A stretch of DNA of 39,615 nucleotides. Origin: a virus. Below, piece after piece: positions 35,190-39,615 of the stretch; position 1 is the first letter of the stretch, and every line of letters starts with the position of its first letter. Position numbers and translations under genes: made by a program. The stretch lies in the IMG/VR virus record IMGVR_UViG_3300025101_000058, positions 1 to 39,615 of that record, one strand, 5' to 3'. A model generated the notes under the pieces. The model was not told where the DNA came from. It was given only the letters and a program-made list of their open reading frames with translations, and did no database searches.

Positions 35190-35714
35190 ATGGCTTTCAA
35201 CTGTCCCTGTTGCAATAAAACCAAACCATCTGATGCCTTTGTCATGTCAGAAATGGGGTTCCCTCTCGTTTCAGTATGTAATGAGTGTTCTGATGAGCAT
35301 TTGATTGAGATCATTGACTGCACATGTTCTGTATGTAAGAGGAAATTACCTTCTACATATTTTCAACACTATCGCACTCGTTTCAAAAGAAATGGAATGA
35401 GATTGAGAGTTAATACTAATTGTAGAGATTGTTCTCGAAAAGAATCTGCTATTCTATCGAAGATAAAGAAAGATAATCCACCTCCAGATTACTTGACACC
35501 TTGCACACAATGTGGTAAGGTTGTTTATGAGAAAGTAGAGGATATTCCAGAGGGTGTCGATGGTACTAATGGCCCATGGCAATGTGACCATGACCACAAA
35601 TCTAAGACCTTTAGAGGATATTTGTGTAAGAGATGTAATACTGGTACTGGTCTTATTGGTGATAACCTTGAATACTTCACAAACGCTGTAAAGAGAAAAG
35701 CATTACATGAATGA
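35190..35714 (+). CDS. Recombination endonuclease VII-like zinc protein (gp49 type)
   Basis: A 174-residue protein. The C-terminal third is the endonuclease VII signature: CDHDHKSKTFRGYLCKRCNT followed by GTGLIGDN (C132, D133-H136, C146, C149, N150, D158, N159). T4 endonuclease VII (gp49) resolves Holliday junctions and branched DNA before packaging; related HNH proteins are free-standing homing-type nucleases. Upstream are several extra Cys pairs (C5/C8, C30/C33, C46/C49, C78/C81, C105/C108), suggesting two N-terminal zinc ribbons ahead of the catalytic domain. An AAGG Shine-Dalgarno is visible before the ATG. It overlaps the methyltransferase by 8 bases. It could be the resolvase or an accessory HNH enzyme; position away from T4-like replication genes favours accessory. 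Confidence 0.82.
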   Translation: MAFNCPCCNKTKPSDAFVMSEMGFPLVSVCNECSDEHLIEIIDCTCSVCKRKLPSTYFQHYRTRFKRNGMRLRVNTNCRDCSRKESAILSKIKKDNPPPDYLTPCTQCGKVVYEKVEDIPEGVDGTNGPWQCDHDHKSKTFRGYLCKRCNTGTGLIGDNLEYFTNAVKRKALHE

Positions 35715-36543
35715 GATAATTACATCTGATAATATATCTTATCTCAAAACATTACCTGATGAGTGCATTGATATGGTGGTTACATCTCCACCTTATGATG
35801 CACTAAGAGATTACAATGGTTATACTTTGGATCTGCATGGATTGGGTGAGCAGTTGTTGAGAGTTTTAAGGGATGGTGGAATATGTGTAATGGTAATACA
35901 GGACTCTACTAAAGATTTTGCTAAGTCACTTACATCATTCAGAACTATTATTGATTGGTGTGATAATATTGGTTTTAGGTTATTTGAATGTAATATCTAC
36001 AACAGGCAAGGCACAGAAGGTGCATGGTGGAAGAAAAGATTTAGAGTAGACCATGAATATATGCCCATATTCTTGAAAGGTAGAAGACCACAATATTTTG
36101 ATAAGGAGAATATAAAGATACCATCAAAGCATGGTGGAAAGGTAATGACAGGTGCAAATATTAGGACTAAGAGTGGTAGAACAGGTTCTCGTAAAGTTAA
36201 GATTAATCCTACCAAATGTCCAGGCACAGTAATGACTTTCGGCAATACTTGTGGTGGTGAAAGTAAATTAAAGAGTAAACATCCAGCAGTATTTCCTAAC
36301 ATGTTGGCATACGATATGATTGAATGTTTTTGTCCTACGGATGGTGTAGTGCTTGATCCTTTTAATGGGAGTGGAACTACTACGTTAGCAGCAAAATGTT
36401 TAGGTAGAAATTATATTGGTATAGATGTATCTGAAGAATATAATCAAATTGCTAGGCAGAGAATGGAGACAGAAGTTATTCATAGAAAGACAGATGTAAC
36501 ATTGTCACAAGCACCTTCCAATCCATTGAGTGATCTGCTATAA
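35707..36543 (+). CDS. DNA methyltransferase, beta class (N4-cytosine or N6-adenine)
   Basis: A 278-residue SAM-dependent DNA methyltransferase. The catalytic motif IV TSPPYDALRDY is at 26-36, near the N-terminus. A variable middle (about 100-190) would recognise the target, and the SAM-binding motif I DPFNGSGTT is at 217-225, followed by YIGIDVS. Catalytic motif before SAM motif is the beta-class order. The SPPY form is commonest in N4-cytosine enzymes but also occurs in adenine enzymes, so the modified base is uncertain. It starts inside the end of the endonuclease gene and is 22 bases from an SF2 helicase that is itself joined to a candidate nuclease. It could protect phage DNA from host restriction or be the modification arm of a phage-borne system. 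Confidence 0.9.
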   Translation: MNEIITSDNISYLKTLPDECIDMVVTSPPYDALRDYNGYTLDLHGLGEQLLRVLRDGGICVMVIQDSTKDFAKSLTSFRTIIDWCDNIGFRLFECNIYNRQGTEGAWWKKRFRVDHEYMPIFLKGRRPQYFDKENIKIPSKHGGKVMTGANIRTKSGRTGSRKVKINPTKCPGTVMTFGNTCGGESKLKSKHPAVFPNMLAYDMIECFCPTDGVVLDPFNGSGTTTLAAKCLGRNYIGIDVSEEYNQIARQRMETEVIHRKTDVTLSQAPSNPLSDLL

Positions 36544-36565
36544 TAAGTTCATCTGAAAAACACTG

Positions 36566-37720
36566 ATGCCATTACGTCCACACCAAACTGATGCTCTGGA
36601 TGCTATGGCAAAGTATGACAAGGGGCAAATCATCGTTCCTACAGGCGGTGGTAAAACTATGTGTATGATTGAGGATGCCAAGAGAGGAGGTACTATTGTT
36701 GTAGTTGCTCCTCGTATTCTATTGGCAGAACAGTTATCATCCGAGTTCCTTGAGGTTCTTGATGATGTATCTGTGATGCACGTTCATAGTGGTGAGACAC
36801 CACACTATTCTTCAACCAAAGTTGAGGATATTTACTTTTGGCACAAGTACACAAGAGGAAATAAGATTATATTTACTACCTATCATTCACTTGATAAGGT
36901 CAAAAGATCTACCATTGATGTAGATACAATTTACTTTGATGAGGCACACAATAGTGTTCAACGAAACTTTTTCCCTGCTGTTAGACATTTTGCAACTGAT
37001 TGGGCTAACAGGTGCTTTTTCTTTACTGCTACTCCTAAGCATAGTCGTACTGTCCAAAAAGCTGGAATGAATGATACTAAGGTGTATGGTCAGGTAATTG
37101 TTAATGTACCAGCACCTAAGTTAGTTAAAGAAGGTTATATCCTACCACCTAAAGTTGAGGTATATAAGAGTCGTTTACTAAGAAAGGATGAGATCTATTC
37201 TGAGGTAGAGTCAGAACACATGATTAGTGCTATTGATAAATTGGAGGTAGACAAGATTCTTATCTGTGCAAAATCTACCAAACAGATTACTAATCTTTTA
37301 TATGCCTCTAAGTTTCAGGATGAACTTGCTTGGCGTGGTTATTCATGGATGACTATTACATCAAAGACAGGTGCTATCATTGATGGTGAGAAGGTAGGTA
37401 GAGATGAGTTCTTTAATGTTCTCAATGCGTGGGGTAAGGATGATGATAAGAAGTTTGTAGTATTACATCACAGCATATTGGCAGAAGGAATCAATGTCAA
37501 GGGTCTTGAGGCAGCAGTGTTTATGCGTAATATGGATTATATCACTATCAGTCAAACGATTGGTAGAGTGATCCGATTGGGTAACTGTCACAAGACACAT
37601 GGTAAGGTATGTGTCCCAGTGTATAATAATGTTGGAGTCAGCACCGCACGTAAAGTCGAGGCAGTTGTTGACACCGTATTCAACAGGGGTGAACCCGCTA
37701 TTTCTGTTATCACAAGATGA
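36566..37720 (+). CDS. SF2 DEAD/DEAH-box DNA helicase
   Basis: A 384-residue superfamily 2 helicase of the restriction/UvsW-like group. Visible motifs: a Q-like entry LRPHQTDALDAM, Walker A PTGGGKT (25-31), motif Ia VVVAPRILLAEQ, DEAH (125-128), motif III FTATP (153-157), LHHSILAEGINVKGLEAAVF and motif VI QTIGRVIRLGN (330-340). It is short for T4 UvsW (503 aa) and has no extra domain, so it holds just the two RecA-like lobes. Its stop overlaps the start of the PD-(D/E)XK candidate by 4 bases (ATGA). Possible roles are branch migration, as in UvsW, or DNA translocation for a split type III-like restriction complex with its neighbours. Confidence 0.88.
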   Translation: MPLRPHQTDALDAMAKYDKGQIIVPTGGGKTMCMIEDAKRGGTIVVVAPRILLAEQLSSEFLEVLDDVSVMHVHSGETPHYSSTKVEDIYFWHKYTRGNKIIFTTYHSLDKVKRSTIDVDTIYFDEAHNSVQRNFFPAVRHFATDWANRCFFFTATPKHSRTVQKAGMNDTKVYGQVIVNVPAPKLVKEGYILPPKVEVYKSRLLRKDEIYSEVESEHMISAIDKLEVDKILICAKSTKQITNLLYASKFQDELAWRGYSWMTITSKTGAIIDGEKVGRDEFFNVLNAWGKDDDKKFVVLHHSILAEGINVKGLEAAVFMRNMDYITISQTIGRVIRLGNCHKTHGKVCVPVYNNVGVSTARKVEAVVDTVFNRGEPAISVITR

Positions 37721-38235
37721 TTGATTTTAAAACTTTCCAATTAGATCGTTTATCTAAACTTCTATATGCAATTAGAGGTTATACTGATAACAATCTACGC
37801 TTTCCAAAAGCAGGTGAAATGGTTGAAAAAGCACTTGCTGAGTATAGTAATGATTTACTTGAAAGAGTAAATTTACCTGGTATTGACTTGGTTACTAAGG
37901 ATAAAATTTCCTATGAGTCAAAAGTAACACAATTCAAAAACAAATCAGGCATTGCAGTTAGAGGTTTGATTATTAAAAACCGTAGAGCAGCAAAAGATTA
38001 TGATGACAAACTTGCTGATTACTTTATCATATCTGATGTGAAGAGTGGTAAGGCATGTTGTGTATCATCTGATAAACTCTACAACTTTAAAGATACTGGT
38101 GCAGTATATACAGCATCATGTGATCCTGATCCTGCAGATTTTTTCCTAACAGGTTATAATGACTTAAATGAGTCAAGAGATTATTTTGAGGAATCAGAAG
38201 ATTATGATCTACAGTTCATTAAATCCATTAATTAA
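37717..38235 (+). CDS. Putative PD-(D/E)XK nuclease coupled to the SF2 helicase
   Basis: A 172-residue protein of no family I can name. Residues 53-70 read LPGIDLVTKDKISYESKV: an acidic D57 in a G-I-D turn, then E67-S68-K69 ten residues later. This is the spacing of the PD-(D/E)XK active site of restriction-type nucleases. It is followed by a Lys/Arg-rich strand (FKNKSGIAVRGLIIKNRRAA) and LADYFIISDVKSGKACCVSS, a layout common in restriction-like folds. The C-terminus is acidic. The 4-base overlap with the helicase suggests coupled translation and a common complex. Nuclease activity is an inference from the motif. Confidence 0.55.
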   Translation: MIDFKTFQLDRLSKLLYAIRGYTDNNLRFPKAGEMVEKALAEYSNDLLERVNLPGIDLVTKDKISYESKVTQFKNKSGIAVRGLIIKNRRAAKDYDDKLADYFIISDVKSGKACCVSSDKLYNFKDTGAVYTASCDPDPADFFLTGYNDLNESRDYFEESEDYDLQFIKSIN

Positions 38236-38240
38236 TCATT

Positions 38241-38528
38241 ATGAAGTACAACGCTGACATCGTTAAAGGGTGGATTCAATTCCAAATTGCCAAACCAGAG
38301 GGTGACACTACTAAAGTACAATCTTGGTATAAATATGCAAAATCAACCTCATATTGGGATCTATCTCAAGGAGATGCAATGCCATTTTGCCGACTTGCTA
38401 AAATTGCAGGGCAAAGAATTAATGAGGAGTATGGTGGTAATGATATAATAAAGTTACATTTTCCTGGAATTTATCTTCATTCAAAACAAAAATGGGAAAG
38501 AACAGGTTACAGTAAAATCACAGGTTAA
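38241..38528 (+). CDS. Small hypothetical protein (95 aa) in the nuclease island
   Basis: A 95-residue protein, basic and aromatic: ADIVKGWIQFQIAKPEGD, VQSWYKYAKSTSYWDLSQ, GIYLHSKQKWERTGYSK. No catalytic motif or recognised domain. It is 5 bases downstream of the putative nuclease and 5 bases upstream of the HNH gene, so it is in the same operon. The high Trp/Tyr/Lys content would fit a small DNA- or protein-binding subunit, but that is only a guess. Confidence 0.65.
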   Translation: MKYNADIVKGWIQFQIAKPEGDTTKVQSWYKYAKSTSYWDLSQGDAMPFCRLAKIAGQRINEEYGGNDIIKLHFPGIYLHSKQKWERTGYSKITG

Positions 38529-38533
38529 TTATT

Positions 38534-39031
38534 ATGGAAACTATTATCATTGAAGGTATTGAACTTCGTGTTCTAAAAAGATTTGGATTAGTAATACCTG
38601 ATTACTATGTGAGTAAATGTGGTAAGATATGGAGTTCAAAGACAAACAAATGGAAGGCAGTATTTGAAAACTGGAGACAGAAGAAAGGTGTTGGAAAACC
38701 AAAGTGTTATGATTTTAGTGTTACAACTCTAGCACAACCATTTCGTGACTTAGGTATGAAATATACAAAAAAGACCTCTACCAGAGACACAGCAGAGTTT
38801 AGAGTTAAACTTCATCAAGCAGTAAAAACTGTATGGCATCCTCTTGAAGATTATTCTCACGAAATAGGAATAACAAGAGAGCAATGGGATCAAGCACCTC
38901 AACCATTTAAACAACTTGCATACGATACTGTTTTAATAGATCATATTGATGATGACATATCAAATAACAGTTTAGATAACTTACAGTATTCTACACCATT
39001 AAGAAACTCAAATTATAGGAAGAAGTGGTAA
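38534..39031 (+). CDS. HNH homing-type endonuclease with NUMOD4-like N-terminus
   Basis: A 165-residue protein. Residues 20-40 (VIPDYYVSKCGKIWSSKTNK) resemble the NUMOD4 motif Y.VS..G.iwS often found before HNH domains. The C-terminal part holds LHQAVKTVWHPL, then LIDHIDDDISNNSLDNLQY and STPLRNSNYRKKW, the H..aV...., DHID.D..NN...NL....... N pattern of HNH_3 endonucleases. Such enzymes are common free-standing homing endonucleases in T4-like phages, cutting related genomes to spread themselves and linked DNA. The spacing between the first His and the DHID block is longer than usual. The stop shares one base with the next ATG (TAATG). Confidence 0.8.
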   Translation: METIIIEGIELRVLKRFGLVIPDYYVSKCGKIWSSKTNKWKAVFENWRQKKGVGKPKCYDFSVTTLAQPFRDLGMKYTKKTSTRDTAEFRVKLHQAVKTVWHPLEDYSHEIGITREQWDQAPQPFKQLAYDTVLIDHIDDDISNNSLDNLQYSTPLRNSNYRKKW

Positions 39032-39477
39032 TGACTGTAAAAGGAACAAAAAGTAGAAACTTTAATCCTATTGGTATATTTGATTGGTGTACCAGTAGAG
39101 ATCAAGTTGTTGACTATTCTATCATTAAAGCACAAGAAGTCTTTATTAAAATGGGTTATAGAGTATTCGTGCCAAATAATCCTGATACAGGTGGGGATGG
39201 TGATTTTATTGTTGAGAAATACCCAGAAGTATCAATAGTATCTTGTAAGTCAACAACTCAAACAACCAGAGCAAAAAATCCAAAACCAGAGATTAATATT
39301 AGAACAAATAGTAAAGCAAAGAATAATTATGGTAAGGTGTGTACTCCTGATAACTATCATTATATGATAGGAATATCACATCTTGGAACATATTGTATAT
39401 GGAATAAGGCAGATTTAATGTTTACTAAAAGTACGGTTTCTTTTGGCAGTAAAAATGGAGAAGTAGGATTATTATGA
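39031..39477 (+). CDS. Putative restriction-like nuclease, degenerate PD-(D/E)XK motif (148 aa)
   Basis: I start this at the ATG overlapping the HNH stop; an upstream GTG at 39025 is less likely. The protein has VVDYSIIKAQEVFIKMGYRV, a helix-then-strand entry common to restriction-like folds, followed by PDTGGDGDFIVEKYPEVSIV and SCKSTTQ. The order D56/D58, strand, then x-x-K (S71-C72-K73 with T75) mimics PD-(D/E)XK, but the usual E is Ser, so it may be inactive, use a shifted acidic residue, or belong to another fold. It overlaps the second methyltransferase by 4 bases (ATGA), a classic pairing of endonuclease and modification genes. The nuclease call is an inference. Confidence 0.5.
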   Translation: MTVKGTKSRNFNPIGIFDWCTSRDQVVDYSIIKAQEVFIKMGYRVFVPNNPDTGGDGDFIVEKYPEVSIVSCKSTTQTTRAKNPKPEINIRTNSKAKNNYGKVCTPDNYHYMIGISHLGTYCIWNKADLMFTKSTVSFGSKNGEVGLL

Positions 39478-39615
39478 GAGACACAATTCTATTTGGAGAT
39501 TGTAGAGATACACTCAAAGAGTTTGATGAGAAGGCAAGGATGTGTGTTACATCCCCACCTTACTATGGATTGAGAGATTATGGTGGAGAAGATTCACAGA
39601 TAGGACAAGAGCAAA
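39474..39615 (+). CDS. Second DNA methyltransferase, N-terminal part (runs off window)
   Basis: An ORF open to the window edge (47 codons visible). It begins MRDTILFGDCRDTLKEF and reaches CVTSPPYYGLRDYGG by residue 39, then DSQIGQEQ. The (D/S)PPY..LRDYG...QIG pattern is typical of beta-type site-specific DNA methyltransferases (N4-cytosine or N6-adenine). It is distinct from the methyltransferase at 35707, which lacks the QIG element, so it probably recognises another sequence. It overlaps the 148-aa putative nuclease by 4 bases. Confidence 0.85.
   Translation, partial: MRDTILFGDCRDTLKEFDEKARMCVTSPPYYGLRDYGGEDSQIGQEQ

What the first reader, a model, noticed from the sequence alone, without database searches (positions are those of the whole stretch)
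35707..38235. Methyltransferase-SF2 helicase-PD-(D/E)XK triad resembling a split, miniature type III-like system
Seen: a beta-class methyltransferase, a minimal two-lobe SF2 helicase and a 172-aa protein with D57...E67-S-K69 are consecutive, the last two overlapping by 4 bases. Known: type III Mod is a beta-class methyltransferase, and Res combines an SF2 helicase and a PD-(D/E)XK nuclease in one large chain. Inference: here the Res parts are separate small proteins in a phage, which could restrict competing phage or host DNA while phage DNA is methylated.
Basis: partly seen in the sequence, partly recalled or inferred. Interest (0 to 1): 0.78.

Follow-up and report, generated by a model that had tools for sequence, protein, structure and literature searches.

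The report
Cyanophage helicase-linked PD-(D/E)XK nuclease
A phage of marine cyanobacteria carries, translationally coupled to a common phage helicase gene, a small DNA-cutting enzyme with the fold of bacterial restriction enzymes; it belongs to an undescribed, swappable nuclease family, but the three genes flagged do not form a miniature type III restriction system.

Summary
The three genes are real and correctly named by class. The 172-aa protein (p172) is very probably a PD-(D/E)XK nuclease: D57, E67, S68 and K69 are invariant in 43 diverse relatives, an AlphaFold2 model is confident (pLDDT 90.5), and nearly all its best structural matches are type II restriction enzymes (R.ThaI Z 9.6, NaeI, NhoI, DpnI). 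It has no Pfam, PHROG, NCBIfam or PADLOC match.

The 'type III-like triad' is not supported. p172 pairs with the helicase (65 of 71 loci). The helicase is a common cyanophage gene that usually occurs without p172. The upstream methyltransferase is next to both only in this phage and near-identical contigs; its conserved partner is the EndoVII-motif nuclease upstream (28 of 32 loci). The region is two back-to-back units: EndoVII nuclease + methyltransferase, and helicase + p172, with a second methyltransferase cut off by the window's end.

The place after the helicase is a plug-in slot: other phages carry there a remote p172 homologue, other nucleases, a methyltransferase, or nothing; p172 presence changes at least 17 times on the helicase tree. 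Most likely p172 is a type II-like site-specific endonuclease used against host or rival DNA. A free-standing homing endonuclease is the main rival. Target and partner are untested.

The parts
37717..38235 (+). p172: PD-(D/E)XK nuclease, catalytic D57, E67, K69 (helix Glu E34/E37 nearby)
   Evidence: invariant residues; model pLDDT 90.5; type II REase matches; purifying selection
36566..37720 (+). SF2 helicase core, cyanomyovirus T4-GC 36 family; second UvsW-like paralogue, not UvsW
37717..37720 (+). ATGA overlap of helicase stop and p172 start (translational coupling); same junction used by other genes found in this slot
35707..36543 (+). beta-class DNA methyltransferase; partner of the upstream EndoVII-motif gene, not of the helicase
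35190..35714 (+). Nuclease with C-terminal Endonuclease VII (DHDH) motif; F-CphI/Hpy99I-like architecture; overlaps the methyltransferase by 8 bases
39474..39615 (+). Start of a second beta-class methyltransferase (P-SSM2 'dam', T4-GC 38 family), cut by the window end; often downstream of the helicase in related phages, with or without p172
38241..38528 (+). 95-aa protein of unknown function; occupies the slot itself in some relatives (L013, L150, L152)
38534..39031 (+). HNH_3 endonuclease-like protein
39025..39477 (+). 150-aa protein, possible further PD-(D/E)XK nuclease (GGDGDFIV ... SIVSCKS); phrog_5018, unknown function
   Evidence: motif read by eye

Best explanation
p172 is a small type II-restriction-fold endonuclease of a new family, made together with the cyanophage helicase by stop-start (ATGA) translational coupling. 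It probably works as a homodimeric, metal-dependent, site-specific double-strand endonuclease. Its most likely role is to cut DNA other than the phage's own (host chromosome or a competing phage), while the phage is spared by its own methyltransferases or by lacking the site. It is an exchangeable cargo gene in a slot behind a common helicase, not the nuclease half of a type III Res. Shown: gene structure, family conservation, slot behaviour; predicted: the fold. Inferred: dimer, target, biological role, and whether the helicase takes part.
For: Invariant D57/E67/S68/K69 in 43 homologues. Model pLDDT 90.5, pTM 0.86. R.ThaI Z 9.6 over 162 of 172 residues; NaeI 8.7; NhoI 8.5; DpnI 8.4; Eco15I 8.3; EcoRV about 7. 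Foldseek's best PDB hits are NhoI (probability up to 0.95, but E-values only 0.01-0.06). dN/dS 0.03-0.28. Helicase directly upstream in 65 of 71 loci, 39 with the same overlap. A methyltransferase directly follows p172 in 8 loci of three kinds: D12 in L038/L039/L043 and L129/L133/L136, beta-class in L077/L079. Presence changes at least 17 times on the helicase tree, at least 14 forced by well-supported branches. The slot also takes n172b, a remote homologue (hhalign 96%, E 1.9e-9; profile E about 1e-9).
Against: No dedicated methyltransferase always accompanies p172: 34 of 56 loci with 1.5 kb or more downstream show none of the queried kinds within 3 kb, and a 153-kb p172 contig (G003) has none by three Pfam families (the contig may be incomplete). 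The D12 neighbour is a methyltransferase found in most cyanophages (498 phage records), so that pairing may be incidental. Site-avoidance tests found no short palindrome missing from p172-bearing phages as a group. The S-SM1-like hint (GTAC 0 of 491) is not shared by the relative L090. No activity data exist.
Confidence: 0.45

Rival explanations
1. p172 is a free-standing homing endonuclease with the PD-(D/E)XK fold (like I-Ssp6803I) that spreads by cutting phage genomes lacking it at the helicase 3' end and being copied in by recombination.
For: Fixed insertion point behind a common phage gene, patchy presence with at least 17 changes on the helicase tree, no steady methyltransferase partner, a diverged homologue in the same site in near-identical phages (L144 and L151 against the window and L013). 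I-Ssp6803I is a structural match, Z 7.1. p172 can be more similar than the helicases it sits behind, e.g. 94% against 70%. Free-standing homing endonucleases are known in cyanophages (PMC6083498).
Against: Broad co-inheritance with the helicase (r 0.85 over 61 loci). No copy has lost its catalytic residues among 43 representatives, whereas homing genes often decay. A second home next to D12 between gp44 and gp62. The best whole-length match is a restriction enzyme, R.ThaI. The rise in identity at the helicase 3' end is not specific to p172 carriers.
Confidence: 0.28
2. Helicase and p172 form one enzyme: an ATP-dependent nuclease, either a split restriction machine (works like CglI/NgoAVII or type ISP) or a recombination and repair complex.
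For: Stop-start coupled pair in 65 of 71 loci. The slot repeatedly holds different restriction-fold nucleases (n172b, the L217 protein, P-TIM40 gp59 nearby). The helicase profile matches type ISP enzymes LlaGI (8e-16) and LlaBIII (2e-15) best among solved structures. Separate helicase and nuclease subunits are known in CglI (PMC5737866).
Against: The helicase exists alone in most phages. p172 lives about 75 kb from the helicase in the L039 phage. The LlaGI match covers only about the first motor lobe and SF2 motors resemble one another. No complex was modelled.
Confidence: 0.17
3. A type III-like split system made of the methyltransferase at 35707, the helicase and p172, as first proposed.
For: The gene order exists in the window and in near-identical contigs.
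Against: The three are not consecutive in any more distant relative; the methyltransferase pairs with the EndoVII-motif gene in 28 of 32 loci; its best PADLOC matches are type II or orphan, not type III; the helicase is a common cyanophage gene.
Confidence: 0.03

Closest known systems
Type IIP restriction endonucleases with PD-(D/E)XK fold (R.ThaI 3ndh, NaeI 1iaw, NhoI 8q5n, DpnI 4kyw)
   Same: Predicted fold and catalytic D...ExK; R.ThaI aligns over almost the whole chain
   Different: No detectable sequence similarity in a PDB profile search; no fixed methyltransferase partner; coupled to a helicase gene in a phage
PD-(D/E)XK homing endonuclease I-Ssp6803I (2ost)
   Same: Fold (Z 7.1), mobile gene at a fixed site
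   Different: I-Ssp6803I lies in a tRNA intron (own knowledge); p172 is free-standing, co-inherited with the helicase, and aligns better to R.ThaI
CglI / NgoAVII ATP-dependent restriction enzymes
   Same: Separate nuclease and SF2 helicase proteins
   Different: R.CglI has a PLD nuclease and a B3 DNA-binding domain, H.CglI has extra Z1 and C-terminal domains (PMC5737866); p172 is PD-(D/E)XK, and the helicase is a bare core
Type III restriction-modification (EcoP15I Mod/Res)
   Same: Same three activities are encoded near one another
   Different: No fused Res, no large Mod, gene order not conserved
Hpy99I / F-CphI EndoVII-motif endonucleases (for 35190-35714 plus the methyltransferase)
   Same: EndoVII motif at the C-terminus; neighbouring methylase as for Hpy99I (PMC6083498)
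   Different: Only this phage group; activity untested

Membership tests
PD-(D/E)XK nuclease superfamily | Conserved D...(D/E)xK catalytic residues | tested here: met
   D57, E67, K69 invariant in 43 of 43
PD-(D/E)XK nuclease superfamily | Restriction-endonuclease-like core fold | tested here: met
   Predicted model only: pLDDT 90.5; top structural rows are type II REases, Z up to 9.6
PD-(D/E)XK nuclease superfamily | Metal-dependent DNA cleavage | not testable with these tools
   Needs biochemistry
Type II restriction-modification system | Cognate methyltransferase in the same genome | tested here: inconclusive
   Directly adjacent in 8 loci; none of the queried kinds within 3 kb in 34 of 56; a D12 methyltransferase elsewhere in S-SM1 and the L044 phage; none found in the partial L048 phage
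Type II restriction-modification system | Sequence-specific cleavage blocked by methylation | not testable with these tools
   Site-avoidance test gave no shared site
Type III restriction-modification system | Res: SF2 helicase and nuclease in one chain | tested here: not met
   Separate ORFs, and the helicase usually occurs without p172
Type III restriction-modification system | Mod subunit encoded next to Res, conserved | tested here: not met
   Methyltransferase adjacent to helicase plus p172 only in the window and near-identical contigs; 28 of 32 loci pair it with the EndoVII-motif gene
Type III restriction-modification system | Mod-type methyltransferase (large, with long target-recognition region) | tested here: not met
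   278 aa; the 25 best PADLOC families shown are all type II or orphan methyltransferases
Free-standing homing endonuclease | Patchy presence at a fixed insertion site | tested here: met
   At least 17 changes on the helicase tree; same junction in 39 loci
Free-standing homing endonuclease | Cuts the unoccupied allele near its insertion site and is copied in | not testable with these tools
   Needs a cleavage or co-infection assay
Type ISP / CglI-like ATP-dependent restriction | Motor related to the LlaGI-type SF2 ATPase | tested here: inconclusive
   Best PDB profile hit LlaGI, 8e-16, over profile positions 7-219 of 392
Type ISP / CglI-like ATP-dependent restriction | Physical complex of motor and nuclease | not testable with these tools
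   No complex prediction was available
UvsW helicase | Orthologue of T4-type UvsW | tested here: not met
   A separate, much better phrog_16 match exists in the same genomes; 22% identity to that P-SSM2 protein

The most novel reading that the evidence does not exclude
The cyanophage helicase is a fixed motor subunit with an exchangeable nuclease plugged in by ATGA coupling: p172, n172b and other restriction-fold nucleases are alternative cutting subunits of one ATP-dependent phage-borne restriction machine whose specificity is changed by swapping the downstream gene.
Probability: 0.14. Interest if true: 0.78.

Novelty: new member of a known kind. Interest (0 to 1): 0.43.

Why it matters
It gives a predicted fold and catalytic residues to an unnamed cyanophage protein family (75 distinct loci here, none recognised by Pfam, PHROGs, NCBIfam or PADLOC) and shows that a common cyanomyovirus helicase is followed by a swap site for nucleases and methyltransferases. 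If p172 acts on host or rival DNA, it would be a restriction weapon in abundant marine phages; if it is a homing enzyme, it would explain the patchy slot. Both are directly testable.

Tried and rejected
A first AlphaFold2 run with 25 close homologues gave pLDDT 52 and meaningless structural matches; it was replaced by the 43-sequence run.

Bacterial relatives: none in 84,980 genomes. That scan is limited by its short peptide patterns.

The Enterococcus phage hit (E 0.6) has stops throughout the matched frame, and the Aeromonas CC2 protein does not match the profile; both were dismissed as chance.

p172 plus D12 as a dedicated type II R-M pair: weakened when D12 proved to be a methyltransferase of most cyanophages, between gp44 and gp62.

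Palindrome avoidance as a route to the target site: CCGG and GCGC are missing from the window and its kin with or without p172. GTAC is missing from S-SM1 (0 of 491; Syn19 278 of 576) and from the 5.4-kb L089 contig (0), but L090, whose p172 is 84% identical to S-SM1's, has 22. Not decisive.

Gene-conversion tract at the helicase 3' end: identity is also high in lineages without p172, so not usable.

Full report
WHAT IS THERE. The window is a 39.6-kb virus record from a T4-like cyanomyovirus (baseplate, tube-cap, hub and tail lysozyme genes; best relatives P-SSM2 and marine cyanophages). The three ORFs exist as described. The methyltransferase is PF01555 with beta-class motif order, the second protein is a bare SF2 helicase core, and the third, p172, overlaps the helicase stop codon by ATGA. 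At 39474 a second beta-class methyltransferase begins (P-SSM2 'dam', T4-GC 38 family) and is cut by the window end.

p172 IS VERY PROBABLY A RESTRICTION-FOLD NUCLEASE. It matches no Pfam, PHROG, NCBIfam or PADLOC family at a meaningful level. Homologues occur in many IMG/VR contigs and in one isolate, S-SM1 (35.5%). In 43 non-redundant sequences D57, E67, S68 and K69 are invariant. The alignment gave a confident AlphaFold2 model (pLDDT 90.5, pTM 0.86). Structural comparison returned type II restriction enzymes almost exclusively at the top: R.ThaI Z 9.6 (162 residues, rmsd 3.9), NaeI 8.7, NhoI 8.5, DpnI 8.4, Eco15I 8.3, then EcoRV, Hjc resolvases and I-Ssp6803I. Foldseek alone gave E-values of only 0.01-0.06, though with probability up to 0.95 for NhoI. 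Selection is purifying (dN/dS 0.03-0.28; some dS values are saturated). The fold is predicted, not solved, and activity is unproven.

THE TRIAD DISSOLVES. Of 71 distinct p172 loci with upstream sequence, 65 have the helicase directly before it, 39 with the same overlap. The methyltransferase at 35707 stands before helicase plus p172 only in the window and near-identical contigs. Across 32 methyltransferase loci it follows the EndoVII-motif gene in 28. That gene carries its motif at the C-terminus, the arrangement of the F-CphI homing endonuclease and the Hpy99I restriction enzyme; in the cited phylogeny, Hpy99I-type genes sit beside a methylase (PMC6083498). The natural reading is two back-to-back units: EndoVII nuclease + methyltransferase, then helicase + p172.

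THE HELICASE. It is the T4-GC 36 'helicase' of cyanomyoviruses, present in over 400 phage records of which only the two S-SM1 records have a detectable p172. It is not UvsW: each complete genome has a separate, better phrog_16 match, and the P-SSM2 protein at that place is 22% identical to the window helicase. Its profile best matches the type ISP restriction enzymes LlaGI (8e-16) and LlaBIII (2e-15) among solved structures, over the first half of the motor only. This is a lead, not membership. The Pfam name 'Type III restriction enzyme, res subunit' is generic for such motors and has already led to the same gene being annotated 'Type III restriction enzyme' in phage RB11-B.

A PLUG-IN SLOT. 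In 80 helicase loci the gene after the helicase varies: p172; n172b, a remote p172 homologue (hhalign 96%, E 1.9e-9, D and E-S-K aligned; recovered by the p172 profile at about 1e-9); another possible PD-(D/E)XK protein (L217, also in S-SCSM1; weak profile match); the 95-aa gene; or the methyltransferase itself. On a 149-row helicase tree p172 presence changes at least 17 times, at least 14 forced by well-supported branches (sampling was enriched for p172 carriers and window-like helicases). Near-identical helicases (L013, L150, L151) carry different contents. Still, where p172 is present its divergence follows the helicase (r 0.85). In a second setting p172 sits before a D12 methyltransferase between gp44 and gp62 (L038, L039, L043, L129, L133, L136); that D12 is itself common in cyanophages.

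HOW IT PROBABLY WORKS. Shown: gene structure, family conservation, slot behaviour. Predicted: the restriction fold. Inferred: a homodimeric metal-dependent endonuclease cutting a specific site in DNA that is not the phage's own. Protection could come from a methyltransferase (one lies within 3 kb in 22 of 56 loci) or from lacking the site. The S-SM1 genome has no GTAC at all (0 of 491 expected, Syn19 278 of 576), but a relative with an 84% identical p172 has 22, so this is only a lead. The lack of a constant methyltransferase, the fixed site and the patchy presence keep the homing endonuclease reading alive at about 0.28. A helicase-nuclease machine (works like CglI or type ISP) is given 0.17, and the original type III idea 0.03.

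NOVELTY. A new, unannotated family of a known fold and kind. The exchangeable, ATGA-coupled nuclease slot behind the cyanophage helicase appears undescribed in the papers I could search, but the literature search was limited to open-licence papers.

Noticed in passing
window 35190-36543: EndoVII-motif (C-terminal) nuclease overlapping a beta-class methyltransferase by 8 bases; the pair is conserved in 28 of 32 loci and resembles Hpy99I-type restriction-modification or an F-CphI-like homing gene with a passenger methyltransferase.
   Followed up: partly
window 39025-39477: 150-aa protein with GGDGDFIV...SIVSCKS, a possible further PD-(D/E)XK nuclease (phrog_5018, unknown function), directly before the second methyltransferase; an 81% homologue lies near the helicase in L218.
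   Followed up: no
L144 2171-2686, L145 4155-4670, L151 4185-4700, L167 1568-2083: n172b: remote homologue of p172 in the same slot in otherwise near-identical phages, suggesting replacement of one nuclease by another.
   Followed up: partly
S-SM1 (L238-L246), Syn19 (L298-L306), P-SSM2 (L278-L285), S-SM2 (L324-L329), P-TIM40 (L318-L323): Whole tetranucleotide palindromes are completely absent from cyanophage sequence: GTAC 0 of 491 in S-SM1; CCGG 0 of 140 in S-SM1, 0 of 147 in Syn19, 0 of 52 in P-SSM2, 0 of 66 in P-TIM40; CTAG 0 of 190 in S-SM2; GCGC 0 in P-SSM2 and P-TIM40. The window has no CCGG or GCGC (7 expected each). Cause unknown.
   Followed up: partly
L232 3943-5389 (P-TIM40 gp59-gp60): Near the helicase, a protein with GYDAILLEQEIENKMS (PD-(D/E)XK-like, read by eye) overlapping a DNA methyltransferase; homologues in Syn9, S-MbCM6 and others. 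Looks like another phage-borne restriction-modification pair.
   Followed up: partly
L039 8307-9564 and Syn19 (L304 16007-16519): By eye, L039 has a relative of Syn19's R.RsaI-like endonuclease next to a beta-class methyltransferase: a possible RsaI-type (GTAC) pair; the Syn19 protein has no tblastn match in S-SM1, which lacks all GTAC.
   Followed up: partly
L083 2100-3486: 187-aa protein (VEVKGKQRQID) followed by a D12 methyltransferase just downstream of helicase plus p172; possibly yet another restriction-modification pair in the same island.
   Followed up: no
L013 4348-5156: The 95-aa gene and p172 are in swapped order relative to the window, with the 95-aa gene directly behind the helicase.
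   Followed up: no
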